21,099 nt of DNA, taken from the NCBI GenBank assembly GCA_004151065.3, contig NWUY0300015847.1:161618-182716 (forward strand), written 5' to 3'. Below the pieces are notes generated by a model, which was given only the letters and a program-made list of their open reading frames with translations, was not told where the DNA came from and searched no databases. This stretch comes from Larix sibirica. Taxonomy: Eukaryota; Streptophyta; Pinopsida; Pinales; Pinaceae. The position numbers were made by a program, and so were the translations under genes. Position 1 is the stretch's first letter; each line of letters opens with the position of its first letter. Shown piece after piece: positions 1-17,980 of this stretch.

Positions 1-545
1 GGGAATACAACCATGTTTTCCTAGAAAAATCATCTATAAATGTGGCATGGTACAAAGATCCTTCTAGATATGGGACTATGTCTAGGTCCAAACACATCAC
101 TTCGTATCAGCTCCAAGATCCATTTTTCCCTTGTAGCACCAGATGGGAATTTCACCCAATTTTGTTGACCATATACATAATGTTCACAAAAAATAGAATC
201 TAAAGAACAACTAGGGATATTTTCAACCATACCTTTACTAAGCAAAGAATGAAATCCCTTCTCTCCAATATGTACCATTCTTTGGTGTCGAGGCATTGTA
301 TTATTCTCTACAGGAAGAGTAGTAATTCTATCATTTTCATTCTCAAGAACAATGGTACCTATTACGCCCATCATTTACAGTCTTCCTAATAACCAATATA
401 ATGTTTCAATCTGAAATCCCCTTAATAACACCATTTCTCTTTGAATTGTCTTGCATTTATCCTTTAATTCAAATGTAGTATGCACACCCACATCACCCAT
501 TTTACTCACAGATATCAAGTTTCTATCCAAACATGGAATATTTCA
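1..545 (-). pseudogene. copia pol remnant: pre-integrase zinc-binding region and start of integrase
   Basis: In a copia polyprotein this segment binds zinc and leads into the integrase core that inserts the cDNA. Between about 545 and 378 the minus strand reads the stretch after the protease, including NLISVSKMGDVGVHTTFELK, then a stop (TAA, 375-377). An open stretch of 114 codons (374-30) follows. It contains HQRMVHIGEKG, CSLDSIFCEHYVYG and FPSGATREKWILELIRSDVFGP. In the HHCC zinc-binding pattern the last Cys position reads CEHY, so the metal site is broken (TAT at 177-179). Near position 48 the frame changes, and the first catalytic integrase motif is visible in another frame as FIDDFSRKTW at about 12-41. 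The rest of the integrase is beyond the window. Confidence 0.88.
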
Positions 546-3500: not shown

Positions 3501-3990
3501 AGGTGGGGTACTTGTGGACTGTATCTAAAAGTGTATCACTGTGATATGCCATCGAATGGCCATGCTAAGTGAGGACTACACCAACAACATACTCCCAAGA
3601 ATTTGTCTCGATCTCAAAGGGTTTTTGTAGATCTGGTAAGGTGAGGACATGCATCAAACATAAGCACTGCTTTGGCTCCTCAAATGCTTGTTTTTGTGGC
3701 TTATAACAAACAAACTTGGCCTTATATCCCTCTTTGGTCACCATGCTAAGGTACCAAGCAATATTTGAAAATCCCAACACAAATCTACGATAGAAGTTGG
3801 CAAGGCCTAGGAAGTTGCGAATCTTCGTGAGAGTTGTCAAGTTCGGCTAATCACGAATGGATTGGATCTTGGCTAGATCCACATCCACACCATGTTTGTC
3901 CACAATGTATCCCAAATAATGAACCCTCTCCATGCCAAATGAGCACTTATCTATATTGGTGTATAACTTGTGTTGTTACAGGGTGTGTTA
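3501..3990 (-). pseudogene. Ty3/gypsy pol fragment: end of reverse transcriptase and start of RNase H
   Basis: Minus-strand reading from about 3975: QHKLYTNIDKCSFGMERVHY, LGYIVDKHGVDVDLAKIQSI, a stop (about 3846-3848), then KIRNFLGLANFYRRFVLGFS, the conserved RT thumb region, and a link into the RNase H start PFEIETNSWEYVVGVVLT. The first catalytic Asp of RNase H is Asn here (AAT, complement of 3601-3603). After a TAG the frame goes on with YHSDTLLDTVHKYPT and ends exactly at the N at 3500. Upstream of 3990 the RT similarity is lost; a possible Asp-Asp pair lies at 4003-4008 beside the second N but is not in normal spacing. Order RT then RNase H with no integrase between them fits gypsy. Confidence 0.85.
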
Positions 3991-7704: not shown

Positions 7705-7994
7705 CTAGCAGCAAAGAACTCGTGGAGATATTTATTCGGTTATGGATTGTAGAGTGTGGTGACTAAGGATAAGTACTTAAGGGATATGTTGGTAGAAGAT
7801 TGGGTCCATATGGAACCTAGAAGGGTATCCAATGTCTCAAATTTTTGGAATGGATTAGTCAAGGCTCTGCTAATTATTGTTAATTGATTAGCTTGGAAAA
7901 TGGGGAATGGTAACAAGGTCTTGCTAGGAATGGATCCCAAGGTGGGTGGGGCAAATTGTTATAAGTTTTAGATAATCTCATAGAAAGCTTAAGG
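7705..7994 (+). pseudogene. LINE ORF2 remnant: region C-terminal to the RT domain
   Basis: Frame 1 from 7705 reads LAAKNSWRYLFGYGL, stop, SVVTKDKYLRDMLVEDWV, RRVSNVSNFWNGLVKAL, stop, LAWKMGNGNKVLLGMDPKVG and NCYKF, then a stop. This is the linker between RT and the zf-RVT domain of plant L1-type LINEs, whose hallmark is the W-x-x-G-x-G-x-x-(I/V) stretch seen here as WKMGNGNKV. A frame change at about 7970 gives DNLIESLR, which ends at the nested insertion. The matching continuation, NLTLFALAQVGTP, starts at 9570 in the same frame. It is therefore one ORF cut in two. Confidence 0.8.
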
Positions 7995-8386
7995 GGAGGC
8001 AAGTGCAAGGGGTTCATTATTGATCCCAACGAACATACAATGTTAACATATGAATGGGGTTTGGGGAAAGCAACCAACAACCAAACAGAATGATGCGCTC
8101 TATATCTAGGAATTGATCATATGGTGTCTCTTGGGATCCAAAAAGATGTCATTTGGGAGACTCTGTTCTGATAATCTCCCAAGTGTGAAAATAAGAGGAT
8201 CTAGAGGACAAGATATCCGGAAAACTGCGTAAGCATATCATGGACCTCCTCCAACACATACCAGACTTCAAATTGATGCATATTCGATGAGATAATAATA
8301 AAAAGGCTAACACTCTAGAAAATAACGCCTCGTTGTTGGAAAAAGGAAAGTTAGTGCAAAATGGGGGAAAACAAACATCACATTAG
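7995..8386 (+). pseudogene. RNase H domain fragment in the nested insertion
   Basis: RNase H removes RNA from RNA-DNA hybrids during reverse transcription. Frame 3 reads GFIIDPNEHTMLTYEWGLGK, then ATNNQTE and TGA (8091-8093), then CALYLGIDHMVSLGIQK. The frame then shifts to frame 2: GDSVLIISQV, KHIMDLLQHIPDFKLMHIR, NNKKANTLENNASLLEKGKL, ending in TAG (8384-8386). The catalytic Glu (8088-8090) and the Asp of GDS (8159-8161) are present. The Asp expected in the last motif (KKADTLAN-like) is Asn (8309-8311), and the first Asp is missing with the truncated start. It differs clearly in sequence from the host LINE's own RNase H at 10336-10750. Confidence 0.72.
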
Positions 8387-8850
8387 CTCCCTTATGAATT
8401 AAGTTAGCAACGCTATTAAGCTTAGCAGATCAATCTAACAACTAACAAGTGTATTCAATGAAATCCACTACCATAAATGGTGGCCACCACCAGTTCGCGC
8501 TCCAAGGAAAGGTTGTAAGGCATCACATGACTTCACGCATGGGAGGCCCTGATAGAAGCTTCTCCACAAGTCATAAATGGTGGAGAGAGGGTAATATGTC
8601 GCTTCTCCCTATTTTCATGGGTGCATTTGGGACAGAAGCATGTAGAGGTTTAGCGTTTGAATTTTGGAAATTTGTAGAGGGGAATAGCATGCTAGTGGTT
8701 ACCTTGTCATTAACATCAAACATTGTGTTTCCCTGCTCTTGTGGAAAGTAGCTTTCTGTCCAAACCATTCATGGATCACTGGAAATCAACAGGGTCGTAG
8801 TGCAAGTTTGCATTTGGTTGAATACAGGGGATATCTTGGTCATTGTTGTT
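8387..8850 (+). other. Unassigned part of the nested insertion
   Basis: A 100-codon open frame (8449-8751) and an overlapping frame with KWWPPPVRAPRKGCKASHDF (about 8463-8522) are present. Neither shows a family motif I recognise. G+C is a little higher than in the spacers. It may be a decayed C-terminal extension after RNase H or 3' UTR. Confidence 0.4.
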
Positions 8851-8861
8851 GAGTTGTAGGG

Positions 8862-9269
8862 AACTTAACAGTGGTTGGGAAGACTTGTTTTCGCTCCAAG
8901 CATGAAAGAGGAATAAATGCCAAGATTCTTGAGTTAATGATTGGCACAAGGGATGTAAGAGCATACATAAGAGAGATAAAAAACAATTTATCTTAGATGA
9001 ATTTACAGTTGGTTGGCATTATAAACGTTGCTCAACAAATTAATTCACACACTTCAGGATTAGACACTTGATTGAAGGAAGTTGAAGTGCACAACAGAGT
9101 TTATGGACACCAGGTAGAAACGATGACGAACACATTAGATCGACTTCAAGAACTATTGACAACAAGCCACTCCATGATTACACAGAAAGAAGGAAGCATA
9201 CACATTGAGGATGATTATGTTTTGCAACCCCTTCAAACCATTATGGATGTTGAAAGCTCCATAGAATAG
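8862..9269 (+). pseudogene. Unrecognised degenerate ORF, helical/coiled-coil-like
   Basis: One frame stays readable from about 8862 to the TAG at 9267-9269 with only two internal stops (about 8994-8996 and 9069-9071). It includes VGKTCFRSKHERGINAKILE, LMIGTRDVRAYIREIKNNLS and, after 9072, EVHNRVYGHQVETMTNTLDR followed by LQELLTTSHSMITQKEGS. The composition (Glu, Gln, Leu, Asn, spaced hydrophobics) suggests an amphipathic helix of about 40 residues. I do not recognise the family. It lies in the nested insertion between the RNase H and the 3' UTR-like tail, so it may belong to that element. The open part from 9072 is only 65 codons, so chance is not excluded. Confidence 0.4.
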
Positions 9270-9562
9270 GTAGGATGGAGTGTTGTTCGACTAGTTTTGA
9301 ATAGAGGCTTTAACAATGGTTAATAACAATTAGATATGAAGTGTTTTTTGCATTTTTGTTGGACCAATATGTAAAATTTTATAGCAGTCCAATAGATATT
9401 AGTTAAAAGAAACATACTTTTTTTTTATATATGTATTAGAGCAAAATATTGTTCAAGATTGTTTACTGCAAGTTTTTGAAATTTTGTAACATGTTCTACT
9501 GACTTTTTTCAGCTTTTTCTCAATACAAACTTAATCATTTTCGTTAAAAAATAAATAGGATG
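9270..9562 (+). other. 3' UTR-like AT-rich tail of the nested insertion
   Basis: No open frame. The sequence becomes T-rich and ends with an A-rich run (aaaaaataaa, about 9546-9555) directly before the LINE ORF resumes. Confidence 0.5.
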
Positions 9563-10335
9563 TTCAAGGAATTTGACTCTTTTTGCTCTGGCTCAAGTTG
9601 GAACTCCCTTTGGAAATGGTCATTCTTGGATGAAAGCTGCAGATTTAGTTTTGGACATGGGAACTTTAACAGAGGAATGGAACTCTTTCGCTCATGGATT
9701 GAATCATTGTGGGGTGTTTCTATCAATGAGGAGGATACATTGGCGTGGATTTGGAATGTTGTAGATGGTTACGTTACTGCAAAGCTTGCTTGTGAAGCAA
9801 TTATTTCTTCATCTTTTGTTATTGACAATAACTGGTGGTATTCTATTTTCTGGAAGTGGAAATGCCTACTCAAGATGAAACTTTTTATTTGGTTATCTTT
9901 AGCAAATACAATTTTAACTCGAGACAACTATTTAAAGAGAGGTGTCAAGGTCCAAATGTCCCCTTTTTATGTATGCAAAATAGTGAGACAGTTTATCATC
10001 TTTTAGTCCATTGTGTTTTCACTAAATAAGTGTGGAGGGAACTCAAAACAAACCTAAAGTTTCATGGGCAATGGATAACTATGTCATATGAGCACAATTG
10101 GAGAACTTGGTTAATTTCTTCCCTTGATAACACTTTTAAGGAGTTGCCTTGTTATATTTGCTGGAAAATTTGGTTGCACGAAAATAAGGTTCTATTTCAA
10201 GATTTCAAACCAAATGTTCATGTAGTAGTTATGGAAGTCTTAGGTTCTTTCAAGGAAATTTACGAAGGAGTGGAGTTTCGTAATCAGAGGATAGTTAATC
10301 CCCTTGATATGATCTTAAGTTATTCCTTAGGGTAC
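9563..10335 (+). pseudogene. LINE ORF2 remnant: zf-RVT domain
   Basis: This is the zinc-binding reverse-transcriptase domain (zf-RVT) of plant LINEs. It reads across three frames. From 9567: NLTLFALAQVGTPFGNGHSW, MKAADLVLDMGTLTEEWNSF. From about 9720: INEEDTLAWIWNVVDGYVTA, WWYSIFWKWKCLLKMKLFIW, LSLANTILTRDNYLKRG. From about 9945: QGPNVPFLCMQNSETVYHLL, VHCVFTK, a stop (10027-10029), then VWRELKTNLKFHGQW and WKIWLHENKVLFQDFKPNVH. The C-x2-(Q)-x6-H-x4-H-C-like arrangement (CMQNSETVYHLLVHC) is the expected zinc site, with the second Cys absent. Two frameshifts and one stop break it. It leads directly into RNase H in the last frame. Confidence 0.85.
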
Positions 10336-11038: not shown

Positions 11039-11050
11039 TAATCAAAACCA
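11039..11050. repeat. Target-site duplication of the retrocopy, left (12 bp)
   Basis: taatcaaaacca, identical to 12372-12383; it abuts the poly(A) (read as T on this strand) of the minus-strand insertion. Confidence 0.88.
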
Positions 11051-11058
11051 TTTTTTTT

Positions 11059-11353
11059 GGTAAAGTTCGTAAATTGTATAAATTCAAAAACCAGAGAGAG
11101 TTACAAAGACATGCCATTGGTGTCCCCATCATGATGAAAGTTCAAGACCAAATACTACTAAGAAAAACACCCCCTGCTGGCTAAAAGAAGTCCACCCTGT
11201 TATTAGCCCATGCCTTAAGCTTTTCAACCTAAAAGAATTTAAGTTTGGATCCCCCACAGGCCGGGGGTTATGACTACAAAATTTTGTTTTTAGAATGACA
11301 GTGTTTTCACACAATACCATGTTTTCTTAGACCTCTCTAAGCAAAGGAAACAA
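11059..11353 (-). other. 3' UTR of the retrocopy
   Basis: Non-coding stretch between the frame's stop (11354-11356) and the poly(A). On the minus strand it ends ...acgaactttacc before the A's. No AATAAA signal is seen near the end, which is common in plants. Confidence 0.7.
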
Positions 11354-12367
11354 TTAATCATCATCAGAAATTAAAACATGCGAAGGACCAGCCCTTGAAT
11401 TTTCTGGTTTGGCCGCTTGTTGAACAATCTCTGGGCAATTTCGAAACACAAGATGAGTGTCAGCCTGCTTACTGGACTGGGGCCGACCGAAAGTCTTCCC
11501 TGTCAGAGCTTGGGCAAGGGCATCTAGATTCGCAATAATTTGAGCCATCTCCATTCGCTGATCCCGCGCTAATGCTCTAAGTCCATCCCCCAAAATTGCA
11601 ATCCGATCAGACATAGAGGTCCTGCTCAAGCCATCATTAAAATGTCGTTGAACGCAATCTTCTATCACCATACTCATAAGAGATTTAACAGTCCAAAACA
11701 CAGTCAAAGTTTCGGTGTGGTGAGTTTCCCGAGTGCGGGTGGACTCTGATTCCTCCGCCAACCCCCCAAAGCTTTAAGCCAACTGACCCACTTCTAGATG
11801 TCTGGTGCCTCTTTGCAACCGCCTCTCCAGGCATTTCACCCTAGCCCTTATCGCGGGCGGGAGCTCCTGCTAAAAGAAACCCTGTACCTTCCCCAATTCC
11901 TTGAGAACCCGCGACATGTGTGTTCTCTTGGGGACATTAACAGTTCTCCTGCTAGTTGATTTTGTTCCAACCATGCTACATGCCCTAAGAAGGAGAGCTC
12001 CACATTGCATTTCAAGCGTCCCGAGAGTGGATTGATACGCTAATGAACCTCCAGTTTCCTTCCCTTAAATGACAGGTAATCTTTCTCGGATCGCCTCGAT
12101 AAGAAGTAGCATGCAACGGAGATATAACTATTGGGAGCCTTGCGTTGTTTTGGTTATCCTTCCAAAATAATCATAAGAGCCAGCTAGGGTGGCCATGAAG
12201 TCTCGCACGGGAGGAAGTACAGAGGGCAGACCTTAGGATCCTTCACTGTCCTTAAAAACATACTTCGCAGCATGTTTTGGGTTGATGATGAACCGTCCAA
12301 TTTTAATGGCACCTGTCACTCATTCCCATTTATTTGTCAATGATGTAATGATGTAAGCACCCACCAT
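11354..12367 (-). pseudogene. Unrecognised 338-codon ORF of the retrocopy (six internal stops, no frameshift)
   Basis: From ATG (12367-12365) to TAA (11356-11354) a single frame holds throughout. Stops interrupt it at codons 16, 45, 80, 101, 166 and 198 (first bases 12322, 12235, 12130, 12067, 11872, 11776). The two TAG and one TGA stops each differ from a Trp or Gln codon by one transition. Blocks include GAIKIGRFIINPKHAAKYVF, MATLAGSYDYFGRITKTTQG, a basic helical stretch RVLKELGKVQGFF then ELPPAIRARVKCLERRLQRG (about residues 153-187), a helical block MEMAQIIANLDALAQALTG, and an acidic end ISDDD. The last 135 codons are open. I see no zinc knuckle, RT, kinase or other known motif. Absence of frameshifts over 1 kb shows it was once under coding constraint. 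It may be a host protein or a retroelement structural protein. Confidence 0.75.
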
Positions 12368-12371
12368 GGGG

Positions 12372-12383
12372 TAATCAAAACCA
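12372..12383. repeat. Target-site duplication of the retrocopy, right (12 bp)
   Basis: taatcaaaacca, identical to 11039-11050, at the 5' end of the minus-strand insertion. The base composition switches sharply to AT-rich beyond it. Confidence 0.88.
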
Positions 12384-13096
12384 ATTTAATTTGACTAAAC
12401 TATAAATATAACATACTAGTTTATCAAAATCTTTTAAAATTGACATCTATTTCCATTTTTTCTTAATAAGTGATCATAAACATCACTATCTTTAAAATTG
12501 ATTAATTGCATTAACCTCTTTATTGTAATTATAAATAATTGATACATTAAACTCTCAAATATACTTTGGATAATTATTTTAAATCTCCTTATGTCCTTTT
12601 ACCAAAATATAATTCCTTTAACTACTATTAAATATGATATACTACAAAAGTATATGGTACAAAATCCCTAAATATCTATCATGTCAACAAGAAAAGAAAG
12701 CTTTTCTTTAAATATTATTAAATAAAACATAATCAAAAGTCCTATACACCTATAAGAAATTTAAAGTTAAACAAAGTTGCCATACTAGCCTACAATAAAG
12801 CAAATGTTCCCAAAATTTCACATCAAAAAACAAGAAAGATAAAGCAAGGACCGTTAAGGCACAAACACAAGCGTGCACAAACTTTTATACGATAACAACT
12901 AAGTGATTGGTGTGATTTAATTTGCATCCAAAGCTATAACATCATTACCTTTACGGGTGGGGCCAACCATCATTAGTAAACTCTCTCTCTCTATATGATA
13001 GTGGGTCATATTCTAATAGTGACATTTTTTTAACTTTTTGTTTTCAAGATAACAAGGGCGAGTGTATGAAATTTGTTACTTTAAAGCATTAAAGAA
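12384..13096. other. AT-rich spacer, no recognisable gene
   Basis: Only short chance frames. A short CT-repeat (ctctctctct) lies at about 12980-12993. Confidence 0.6.
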
Positions 13097-13603: not shown

Positions 13604-14045
13604 TCAGAAAAAAGCCAAGGTAGACTGATCGAGTAAATGATTATCACACCACTCCTCCAAAAAAATAGTGCCTTCTGGAGCAGATAAAGCACACTTAGAG
13701 ATCATGTCAGCCAAAAAATTATGTTCTTTGAATACATGAACAAAGGAGATTTGTCTAAAACAGTTGATAAGGCGCCTCGTGTCCCTCAACCAATAATCCA
13801 ACTGAATAACCTTTAAAGAACACTCCTGGTGTGCCCATTTGATTATCACTTTGGAGTCCCCTCGCGCAAGTAGAAGAGAGATGTCACGCTTCAAGGAAAC
13901 ATAAAGAAGTAATCAAAGGGCAATTAGTTCACTTTTTGTGTTTGTACCCTCACCACAATTCATCCATATATATAGCTTACGGATATCCGGTAAGTACACA
14001 ACAACCCAACACCACTACACCATGAGCCTGACATCCATCACAAAG
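13604..14045 (-). pseudogene. LINE RNase H domain with all four catalytic acidic residues
   Basis: The first Asp lies in LCDGCQAHG (codon at 14039-14037). After a frame change, GEGTNTKSELIAL keeps the Glu (13930-13928), followed by a TGA. Then 97 open codons (13894-13604) read KRDISLLLARGDSKVIIKWA (Asp 13858-13856), FRQISFVHVFKEHNFLADMI (Asp 13708-13706), SKCALSAPEGTIFLEEWC, ending STLAFF and a stop. In LINE RNase H, DGA / E / GDSK / AD are the metal-binding positions; all are present here, unlike the other RNase H copies in the window. The copy is still broken by one frameshift and one stop, so it is not functional. The open 97-codon part suggests it is the youngest LINE fragment here. Confidence 0.82.
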
Positions 14046-15246: not shown

Positions 15247-15634
15247 TGATTTCCTAACTCTAGAACAAAATTGAAAGGGTCTAATTTACGAGGTGGGTAA
15301 TTGCTACAAAGTCGACGTCAAACTCAATAAATATATTAAACATTGACCACTGATTTGTATGCTAGGTCTAATAGTCATGTTTTGTATGGGTGAGGAACCT
15401 TAAACATTGCAATGTAGCAAGCATGACTTCCTAACATCTTCGGTTTCCTAACTCCGAAACAAAAGTGAAAGTGATAACTTTATGAGGTGGGTACTCATTG
15501 CAAAGTAGATGTTATACTTGAAAAATATAATAAAAGTTGAGCTATGATTTATGTGTTGGGTCCAATAGTCATGCATTGTATGGGTGAGAAGCCTTAACAA
15601 TTGTAGTGCAGCGAACACGATTTCCTAGACAAAC
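15247..15634. repeat. 194-bp tandem duplication (satellite-like, two copies)
   Basis: Matched anchors are all 194 bases apart or close to it: ttcctaactc (15251, 15445), and the ttccta at 15428 and 15622. Between them acgaggtgggta / atgaggtgggta and aatagtcatg(t/c)-ttgtatgggtgag recur in order. The copies are roughly three-quarters identical by eye. No coding potential. Confidence 0.85.
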
Positions 15635-17367
15635 TTGGTGGGTGCCACAAACCTGCCAAGTGTCACTCTCCCTCTTTCTCATTTTTTTATTGCCACATCA
15701 AGATTTTCTCTACTCTAATGTCTATACATAGTTTTATGGATAATGGGCATGGCATGTGTCCTTGCATGATAAAATTCTTGGACAACATATTAATTATTTT
15801 TTCTCTCTATTGCCACTTGGATGCACATTCTAACCCCTAGTTCCTATGCCTTTCCCCTCACCATGTGCTTCACCACCCTTAGCCATAAGGCACCCTTTGA
15901 TGTGGATGCTCCACACATGAATGAATAGTATTTTTAGTAGTGTTTTGTGCATTGTAGTAATCACCTTACTCGTATTTCCATGATATAGATGAAATGTAGT
16001 GAACAATGACACACTAAGCTTTCTGATCGATAATTGTGACATGTCAGTATACTATTGGTTAATTAACATTTTCCATATCAAAAAAATGATACACAACCTC
16101 ACACCCTCTCCCCCACCTTTTTTGTCCAATGGCAAATTCACCTCTCTCACCTCTATCCAAATTGAAATGGAATCTTATGCCATCATTTCCATGTGTTATT
16201 TTGTTTGCCACTTGCCTCTTCAATTCTCTCCAAGAATTGATGCACCTTCATAGAGATCAAACTTTTTAATTGAGACTGCACTCATTTATGTTATGTTTTC
16301 AATACATAAATATAATTATGTCCACAAGTGTACTTATAGATCAGCCTTGGGCTTAGTAACTATCACAATGGATGTGAAGGGAACCTTGCAAATATAAAGG
16401 ACGAACGCTATGGGTTTCTTCGTTGATCGTTGAAGCTATTGATTGTCTAAATGGACATGAGTTATGAGCATCACCATGACTCTAATTAAATGGCATTAAT
16501 TAAGTAAATATTTGTGTACATAAATTTACAAATTTGCATATTGTATAAAAAATTTCAATCTTGATCTTCTTTTTTTATTCAAAAGAATCCTCCTTCGAGA
16601 AAAACAAGAATATACAATAACTTTAGAAATAAATATAATCACTCATCCCTTCATTATATATAAAGTTATAGCTGCACATTTATTGCTTTATTATGTTTAG
16701 ATTTATTGTAATACTTAGCACCTTCTACTAATGAGAAGCTTCTCAATAACTATGTTCTCAACTTCTATGTTCAAATTTACAAAGTTATCCCTTCACATTT
16801 GAAAAAAGTTCATGAGAGAAAAATATCACAATCTTATTCCACATTTTCGATATAATAGATAATATTTTTATCATATTAACTTATAATAAGGTTAGGTTTA
16901 TGTTTATCACATAGGATATTAAGGATTTTAGTCAAACTAAATAATTTGCATTTTCCTATGATAATATTATGTTTAATAATTCCAATGATTTTTTAAATAT
17001 TTTATCTCAATTACTATTACATAAAATTTAAAACTTACATTTCAATTTTATTTTAACATTATTTTTTATTTAAAATAATTTCCATTATTCTCATTTCATA
17101 TTATTTTTTTATACATATGTAAAAATATATGTCTTAAACTAGCATAATAAACCATAATAATATAGAAATTGTTTTCTATATATTTATAAAGAATGTATTC
17201 TATTACACGTTATCTAGGTTTTAGAGAATCAAAGATATGGTCATAATTATATAATCTACTCAATCATTATATAGTCAATATATAGAGGCTCAACAAGAGA
17301 ACGGTAACAATCATTCCTCTCAACCACCCAAGCTACATCCCATGGACGAAGTTACGTTTCAATTTAC
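15635..17367. other. Intergenic spacer, no recognisable gene
   Basis: Short open frames (15830-16042 minus, 15999-16253 plus) lack motifs. From about 16260 to 17280 the sequence is extremely AT-rich. A decayed element cannot be excluded. Confidence 0.55.
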
Positions 17368-17980
17368 CTTGTTTGAAAATGTAGCAAAAATCAAAACCTT
17401 TCCTAAGTTGAACTTTGATAAATCTCAAAATCAAAACCTTTCCTAAGTCAAACTCAAGAAATCTCAAATATCAAAACCTTTCCTAAGTCAAACTCAAGAA
17501 ATCTCAAATATCAAAACCTTTCCTAAGTCAAACTTTGAGAAATCTCAAAATGTCCAATGCATTGAATAAAAAGGACAATAAGATGTTAAAAAATGCAAAT
17601 CGATGTGAAACGATTACTTAAAAATCTCTTCTTTACCAAGCCAAGATAATAAGAACTTTTGTTTACTAGAGTAAGGAAAAAGTAATAGCTAAAGCTCAGC
17701 AATATCATATCAAGTTATCTTGTTTGAACATGTAGCAAAAATCAAAACCTTTCCTAAATTGAACTTTGAAAAATCCCAAAATTTCAATGCATTGAACCAA
17801 AAAAAATGGCCAATGATATGTTAAAAAATGAAAATCAACGTGAAACTATTACTCGGAATCCCTTCTTCACCAATCAAGGACTAAGAAGAACAAAAAACGA
17901 AATAATATGTTAAAAAATGCAAACCGATGTGAAATTATTACTCAAATCCCTCCTCCGTCCATCAAGGACTAACAAGTGCC
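17368..17980 (+). repeat. Higher-order tandem repeat: unit A (expanded), unit B, partial unit C
   Basis: Unit A starts cttgtttgaaaatgtagc at 17368 and unit B cttgtttgaacatgtagc at 17719. Each continues with tcaaaacctttcctaa, a-tgcattgaa, atgttaaaaaatg, and gtgaaac-attact. Unit A carries four copies of a 40-bp core where unit B has one; allowing for 120 bp, the true period is about 231-235 bp. A partial third copy begins near 17900 with aatatgttaaaaaatgcaaa. Units B and C share tcaaggacta as well. Confidence 0.85.
17391..17550 (+). repeat. 40-bp minisatellite, four copies
   Basis: tcaaaacctttcctaagt starts at 17391, 17431, 17471 and 17511, exactly 40 bases apart. The outer copies share an aactttga variant and the inner two aactcaag, so the array has internal structure. 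Confidence 0.95.

What the first reader, a model, noticed from the sequence alone, without database searches (positions are those of the whole stretch)
11039..12383. Retrocopy of an unidentified 338-codon protein with perfect 12-bp target-site duplication and poly(A)
Identical taatcaaaacca repeats bracket an insert whose minus strand starts four bases before an ATG and ends in A8. Inside, one frame runs 338 codons with six stops and not a single frameshift, at far higher G+C than the surroundings. So an mRNA coding for an unknown protein was copied back into the genome. The protein (GRFIINPKHAAKYVF, LGTLEMQCGALLL, ELPPAIRARVKCLERRLQRG, acidic end) has no motif I know. It is either a lineage-specific host protein or the structural protein of an undescribed retroelement.
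Basis: partly seen in the sequence, partly recalled or inferred. Interest (0 to 1): 0.75.

Follow-up and report, generated by a model that had tools for sequence, protein, structure and literature searches.

The report
Decayed retrocopy of an unidentified transcript
A polyadenylated RNA was very likely copied back into a plant chromosome by LINE-type machinery; which gene it came from could not be found with the collections at hand, so for now it is an ordinary retropseudogene with an unknown parent.

Summary
The anatomy is real. Minus-strand insert 11051-12371 ends in A8 and is bracketed by identical 12-bp direct repeats (11039-11050, 12372-12383); the six bases before the 5' repeat are TTAAAT, one off the L1 target TTAAAA. 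It is the longest of nine repeat pairs found beside A-runs in the window; simulated window-length sequence gave 0.005 such structures per run in 200 runs. Best reading: L1-like, target-primed retroposition of a polyadenylated transcript.

The claim of one 338-codon frame with six stops and no frameshift is only partly supported. The last 139 codons (11357-11773) carry a clear period-3 signal (0 of 1000 shuffles reach it); the 197 codons tested upstream do not (P 0.196). All six internal stops lie upstream of 11773.

The parent is unidentified: no usable match in Pfam, NCBIfam, PDB, viral, GTDB or plasmid collections, or among 5.8 billion proteins. But a Pfam-recognised LINE segment of this window also finds nothing among those proteins, so that failure says little. 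The own-genome search did not complete (22 attempts); copy number, introns and intact relatives are untested. Host pseudogene, transposable-element fragment and RNA-virus relic cannot be told apart.

The parts
11039..11050 (-). 3' copy of the 12-bp target-site duplication (TGGTTTTGATTA on the minus strand)
   Evidence: the repeat finder; script
11051..11058 (-). poly(A) of eight, end of the copied RNA
   Evidence: sequence
11059..11353 (-). presumed 3' untranslated region; TTGTAA starting 48 bases before the tail, no AATAAA; no period-3 (P 0.904)
   Evidence: role inferred
11354..11773 (-). 139 open codons plus TAA: the statistically supported coding remnant; modelled, at low confidence, as helices with a disordered end
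   Evidence: 0 of 1000 shuffles reach its period-3 power; pLDDT 53.7
   Evidence: five stops in the 197 codons tested, 11777-12367; the sixth at 11774-11776
12368..12371 (-). CCCC, 5' edge of the insert, probably a truncation point
   Evidence: inference
12372..12383 (-). 5' copy of the 12-bp target-site duplication
12384..12389 (-). TTAAAT directly before the 5' repeat, one mismatch from the L1 nick site TT^AAAA
   Evidence: hexamers within one mismatch are 30 of 995 in the local flank and 385 of 21093 in the window

Best explanation
A polyadenylated plant transcript was used as template by an L1-like LINE machinery. Its endonuclease nicked a TT^AAAT site, the A-tail paired with the T-rich end that was set free, reverse transcription stopped before the RNA's 5' end, and repair left a 12-bp duplication. 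The copied RNA carried the 3' part of a protein-coding region (at least 139 codons) and about 300 bases of 3' untranslated sequence. The copy has no sign of function. Shown: repeats, tail, target-like hexamer, coding periodicity in 139 codons. Inferred: the LINE as agent, the 5' truncation, and that the template was a host-gene or transposable-element transcript.
For: Exact 12-bp repeats bracketing the insert; A8, and TTAAAT before the 5' copy; the longest of nine repeat pairs beside A-runs of six or more in the window; 0.005 such structures per simulated window-length sequence, 200 simulations; G+C change at the edges; period-3 in the C-terminal 139 codons (0 of 1000) and none in the 3' UTR (P 0.904). 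Two LINE-type remnants that Pfam recognises, zf-RVT and RVT_3, lie in the same window. TSD, poly(A) and TTAAAA-like sites are reported for some retrocopies in dicots (PMC4838847, passages); processed pseudogenes and mostly poly(A)-ending L1-clade LINEs are described for flowering plants (PMC3747384, abstract and passages).
Against: No parent, no empty site in a relative and no second copy could be shown. If the six stops arose after insertion, about 114-148 substitutions (0.11-0.15 per site) are needed, at which the 24 bases of the two repeats would stay unchanged with probability 0.02-0.06 (0.04-0.11 for the 16-bp version with at most one change); so either some stops predate the insertion or the upstream frame is not the real one. 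The hexamer alone is weak (about 3% by chance in the local flank). The source paper for plant L1-like retrocopies also reports that several of its cases deviate from the standard model.
Confidence: 0.8

Rival explanations
1. The insert is itself a 5'-truncated copy of a retroelement (the 3'-most reading frame plus 3' UTR of a LINE or of a non-autonomous relative), so the 'protein' belongs to the element and not to a host gene. (This is a rival about the template, not about the mechanism.)
For: 5'-truncated, A-tailed, TSD-flanked copies are the commonest product of LINEs (established knowledge); the window holds two Pfam-recognised LINE-type remnants; the tail sequence reminds me of plant LINE ends (recalled, from no call).
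Against: None of six pieces of this frame and one downstream piece, nor ten pieces of other frames (22 open stretches were listed), matches a Pfam model above its cut-off; the last 200 bases have no relative elsewhere in the window (best local score 57 against 60 on average for shuffled tails); the 3' end folds no better than shuffles (z -0.27 and 0.36). Truncation could have removed the recognisable domains.
Confidence: 0.3
2. It is a relic of a non-retroviral RNA virus (capsid or nucleocapsid mRNA) captured by LINE machinery.
For: Partitivirus coat-protein and rhabdovirus nucleocapsid sequences are endogenized in plants (PMC3136472, abstract and passages); the coding remnant is unlike any family held and its weak model is helical.
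Against: No relative confirmed in viral contigs for two pieces; 331 Foldseek matches in the viral library, none at E <= 0.001, from a poor model; the three partitivirus coat-protein motifs quoted in that paper occur in none of the three minus frames. All weak, since sensitivity was low.
Confidence: 0.08
3. No retrocopy: a G+C-rich patch whose flanking repeat and A-run coincide by chance.
For: The openness of the frame alone is unremarkable (P 0.046; 0.068 and 0.075).
Against: 0.005 expected structures per window, plus the TTAAAT, the G+C change at the repeats and the period-3 signal.
Confidence: 0.05

Closest known systems
Retrocopies with L1-like hallmarks in dicots (PMC4838847, passages seen)
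   Same: TSD of similar length, short poly(A), TTAAAA-like target site
   Different: Those have named parent genes; here the parent is unknown and the host species is not given
5'-truncated plant L1-clade LINE copies
   Same: A-tail, TSD, arbitrary 5' end (established knowledge)
   Different: No Pfam model of a LINE protein reached its cut-off in the pieces scanned
Endogenous partitivirus coat-protein and rhabdovirus nucleocapsid sequences in plants (PMC3136472, abstract and passages seen)
   Same: A decayed single-protein remnant in a plant chromosome
   Different: No sequence or fold relationship found with the tools at hand; quoted partitivirus motifs absent

Membership tests
L1-mediated processed retrocopy | target-site duplication at both ends | tested here: met
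   12 of 12 bases identical
L1-mediated processed retrocopy | 3' poly(A) adjoining the repeat | tested here: met
   A8 at 11051-11058, minus strand
L1-mediated processed retrocopy | TTAAAA-like target site before the 5' repeat | tested here: met
   TTAAAT, 5 of 6; about 3% chance locally
L1-mediated processed retrocopy | coding content of the copied RNA | tested here: met
   period-3 in 11357-11773, 0 of 1000 shuffles; not significant in 11777-12367, P 0.196
L1-mediated processed retrocopy | intron-bearing parent gene whose introns are missing in the copy | not tested
   no parent found; the genome search did not complete (22 calls)
5'-truncated LINE copy | LINE protein domains or a shared LINE 3' end | tested here: inconclusive
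   no Pfam match above cut-off, no shared tail in the window; but truncation could have removed the domains and only this window was compared
Endogenous RNA-virus sequence | similarity to a viral protein | tested here: inconclusive
   none, but low sensitivity

The most novel reading that the evidence does not exclude
The remnant is a visible trace of an undescribed plant mobile element or RNA virus whose helix-rich, acid-tailed structural protein has no relative in Pfam, and which was carried by LINE machinery.
Probability: 0.12. Interest if true: 0.5.

Novelty: new member of a known kind. Interest (0 to 1): 0.2.

Why it matters
As it stands it is one more LINE-type retrocopy in a plant, a class that is documented but, by the abstract and section headings of PMC7935947, of modest weight among plant pseudogenes. 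It would matter only if the parent turned out to be a lost lineage-specific gene, or a protein of an undescribed element or virus.

Tried and rejected
Searched without a usable match: Pfam with six of the seven pieces of the frame (the first, 15-16 residues, is too short) plus one downstream piece (best E 0.032 and under its cut-off) and with ten pieces of the other frames, out of 22 open stretches listed (best E 0.076, under its cut-off); NCBIfam with five pieces (none at E <= 1); PDB with two pieces (best E 1 and 0.41); protein collection with the X-marked frame (2822 candidates, none at E <= 10) and the 139-residue piece (40 candidates, none at E <= 10); viral contigs with two pieces (6 and 35 stretches matched a pattern, none confirmed); GTDB contigs with the 139-residue piece (312 stretches, none confirmed); plasmids with the same piece; Rfam with the window (none at gathering score). 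PHROGs, PADLOC, phages and E. coli genomes were not searched.

Control: the LINE zf-RVT segment 9548-10006, a Pfam hit (E 3e-6), also gives nothing in the protein collection (8 candidates, none at E <= 0.001), so searches are uninformative.

Tail as a LINE end: no shared end in the window, no folding beyond chance. Structure of the 139-residue piece: pLDDT 53.7, pTM 0.35, too poor for the fold matches to mean anything; the PDB structure library was not tried. Paper searches: (plant half-LINEs, all five terms asked for) listed no paper.

Full report
What is there. On the minus strand the insert runs from 12371 down to 11051 and ends in eight A. It lies between identical 12-bp repeats, 12372-12383 and 11039-11050. 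The six bases before the 5' repeat, in the sense of the insert, are TTAAAT. In the L1 scheme the nick falls in TT^AAAA and the four A are by convention counted with the tail (PMC4838847, passages); the 16-bp extension with one mismatch reported is these same four bases. Hexamers within one mismatch of TTAAAA make up 30 of 995 in the adjoining 1 kb and 385 of 21093 in the window, so this is modest support by itself. A 12-mer flush with an 8-base A/T run and with a second copy 300-3000 bases away arises 0.005 times per simulated sequence of window length (200 simulations). A scan of A-runs of six or more on both strands, for exact repeats of 10 bp or more 300-6000 bases away, found nine pairs; this one is the longest, and the other eight are 10-11 bp.

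The coding claim. Openness alone is weak evidence: P 0.046 for seven or fewer stops in the best of three frames (20000 Markov sequences), 0.068 in the best of six, and 0.075 for an open run of 139 codons (2000 shuffles each). Period-3 power is significant over the whole frame (P 0.001) and over the last 139 codons (0 of 1000 shuffles), but not over 11777-12367, 197 codons (P 0.196), nor in the 3' UTR (P 0.904). Against: the position score is within the shuffled range (P 0.155, 5000 shuffles), and of the eight overlapping windows between 12370 and 11696 three prefer another frame and one ties. Five of the six internal stops lie in the 197 tested codons and the sixth is the codon between them and the supported part.

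A tension worth keeping. If the six stops arose after insertion, 114-148 substitutions (0.11-0.15 per site) would be needed, and the 24 repeat bases would then stay unchanged with probability 0.02-0.06. Either some stops were already in the template (a transcribed pseudogene or element), or the insert decayed faster than its flanks, or the upstream frame is wrong. Faster cytosine decay in the insert is not favoured: its CpG observed/expected is 0.62 against 0.38 in the flanks. A wrong upstream frame is the simplest, because the 139 supported codons have no stop.

Identity. No usable match was found in Pfam, NCBIfam, PDB, Rfam, viral contigs, GTDB contigs or plasmids for the pieces sent (the pieces sent are listed under Tried and rejected). 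The protein collection gave nothing either, but neither did it for a LINE segment of this same window that Pfam recognises. The collection therefore seems to lack this lineage, and failure to find a parent there carries little weight. Pfam covers plants, so its silence suggests that the 139-residue piece is not a common, described domain. A single-sequence model of that piece is mostly helix with a disordered last third, at low confidence (pLDDT 53.7); matches in the viral fold library were not meaningful (none of 331 at E <= 0.001).

Mechanism. The best-supported account is L1-like target-primed reverse transcription of a polyadenylated RNA, ending before the RNA's 5' end. Two LINE-type remnants are present nearby (zf-RVT at 9548-10006 +, RVT_3 at 13604-13912 -). 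Retrocopies with such hallmarks, some of them imperfect, are described in dicots (PMC4838847, passages); processed pseudogenes in flowering plants are mentioned, and relaxed template choice by some plant L1 lineages is proposed, in PMC3747384 (abstract and passages). [quoted passage not shown] The template may be a host gene, an element's own transcript, or, less likely, a viral mRNA; RNA-virus relics in plants are known (PMC3136472, abstract and passages), but the partitivirus motifs quoted there are absent here.

What could not be done. The ATG four bases inside the edge is not evidence of a full-length protein, since 5' truncation at any point is usual (established knowledge).

Verdict. A real retrocopy-like insertion, partly as described, of an unidentified transcript; ordinary in kind, with its parent open.

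Noticed in passing
window 9548-10006 +: LINE zinc-binding (zf-RVT) segment, Pfam E 3e-6, without a relative at E <= 0.001 in the 5.8-billion protein collection.
   Followed up: partly
window 7985-9551 +: By eye an RNase-H-like reading followed by about 850 bases with helical-looking frames, an acidic end and an A6 run at 9546-9551: perhaps a second A-tailed insertion. No flanking repeat of 10 bp or more was found for it.
   Followed up: partly
window 13604-13912 -: RNase H of LINE type (RVT_3, E 6.4e-08).
   Followed up: no
window 30-374 - and 3565-3846 -: Remnants of LTR retrotransposons: gag_pre-integrs (27.2 bits, just below its cut-off of 28.4) and RT_RNaseH_2.
   Followed up: no
window 17359-17976 +: Tandem and dispersed short repeats of 40-73 bases.
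   Followed up: no
window 15250-15433 and 15444-15627: A 184-base direct duplication at 75% identity, ten bases apart.
   Followed up: no
window 11354-12367: CpG is less depleted inside the insert frame (observed/expected 0.62) than in its flanks (0.38), which would fit an insertion younger than its surroundings.
   Followed up: no
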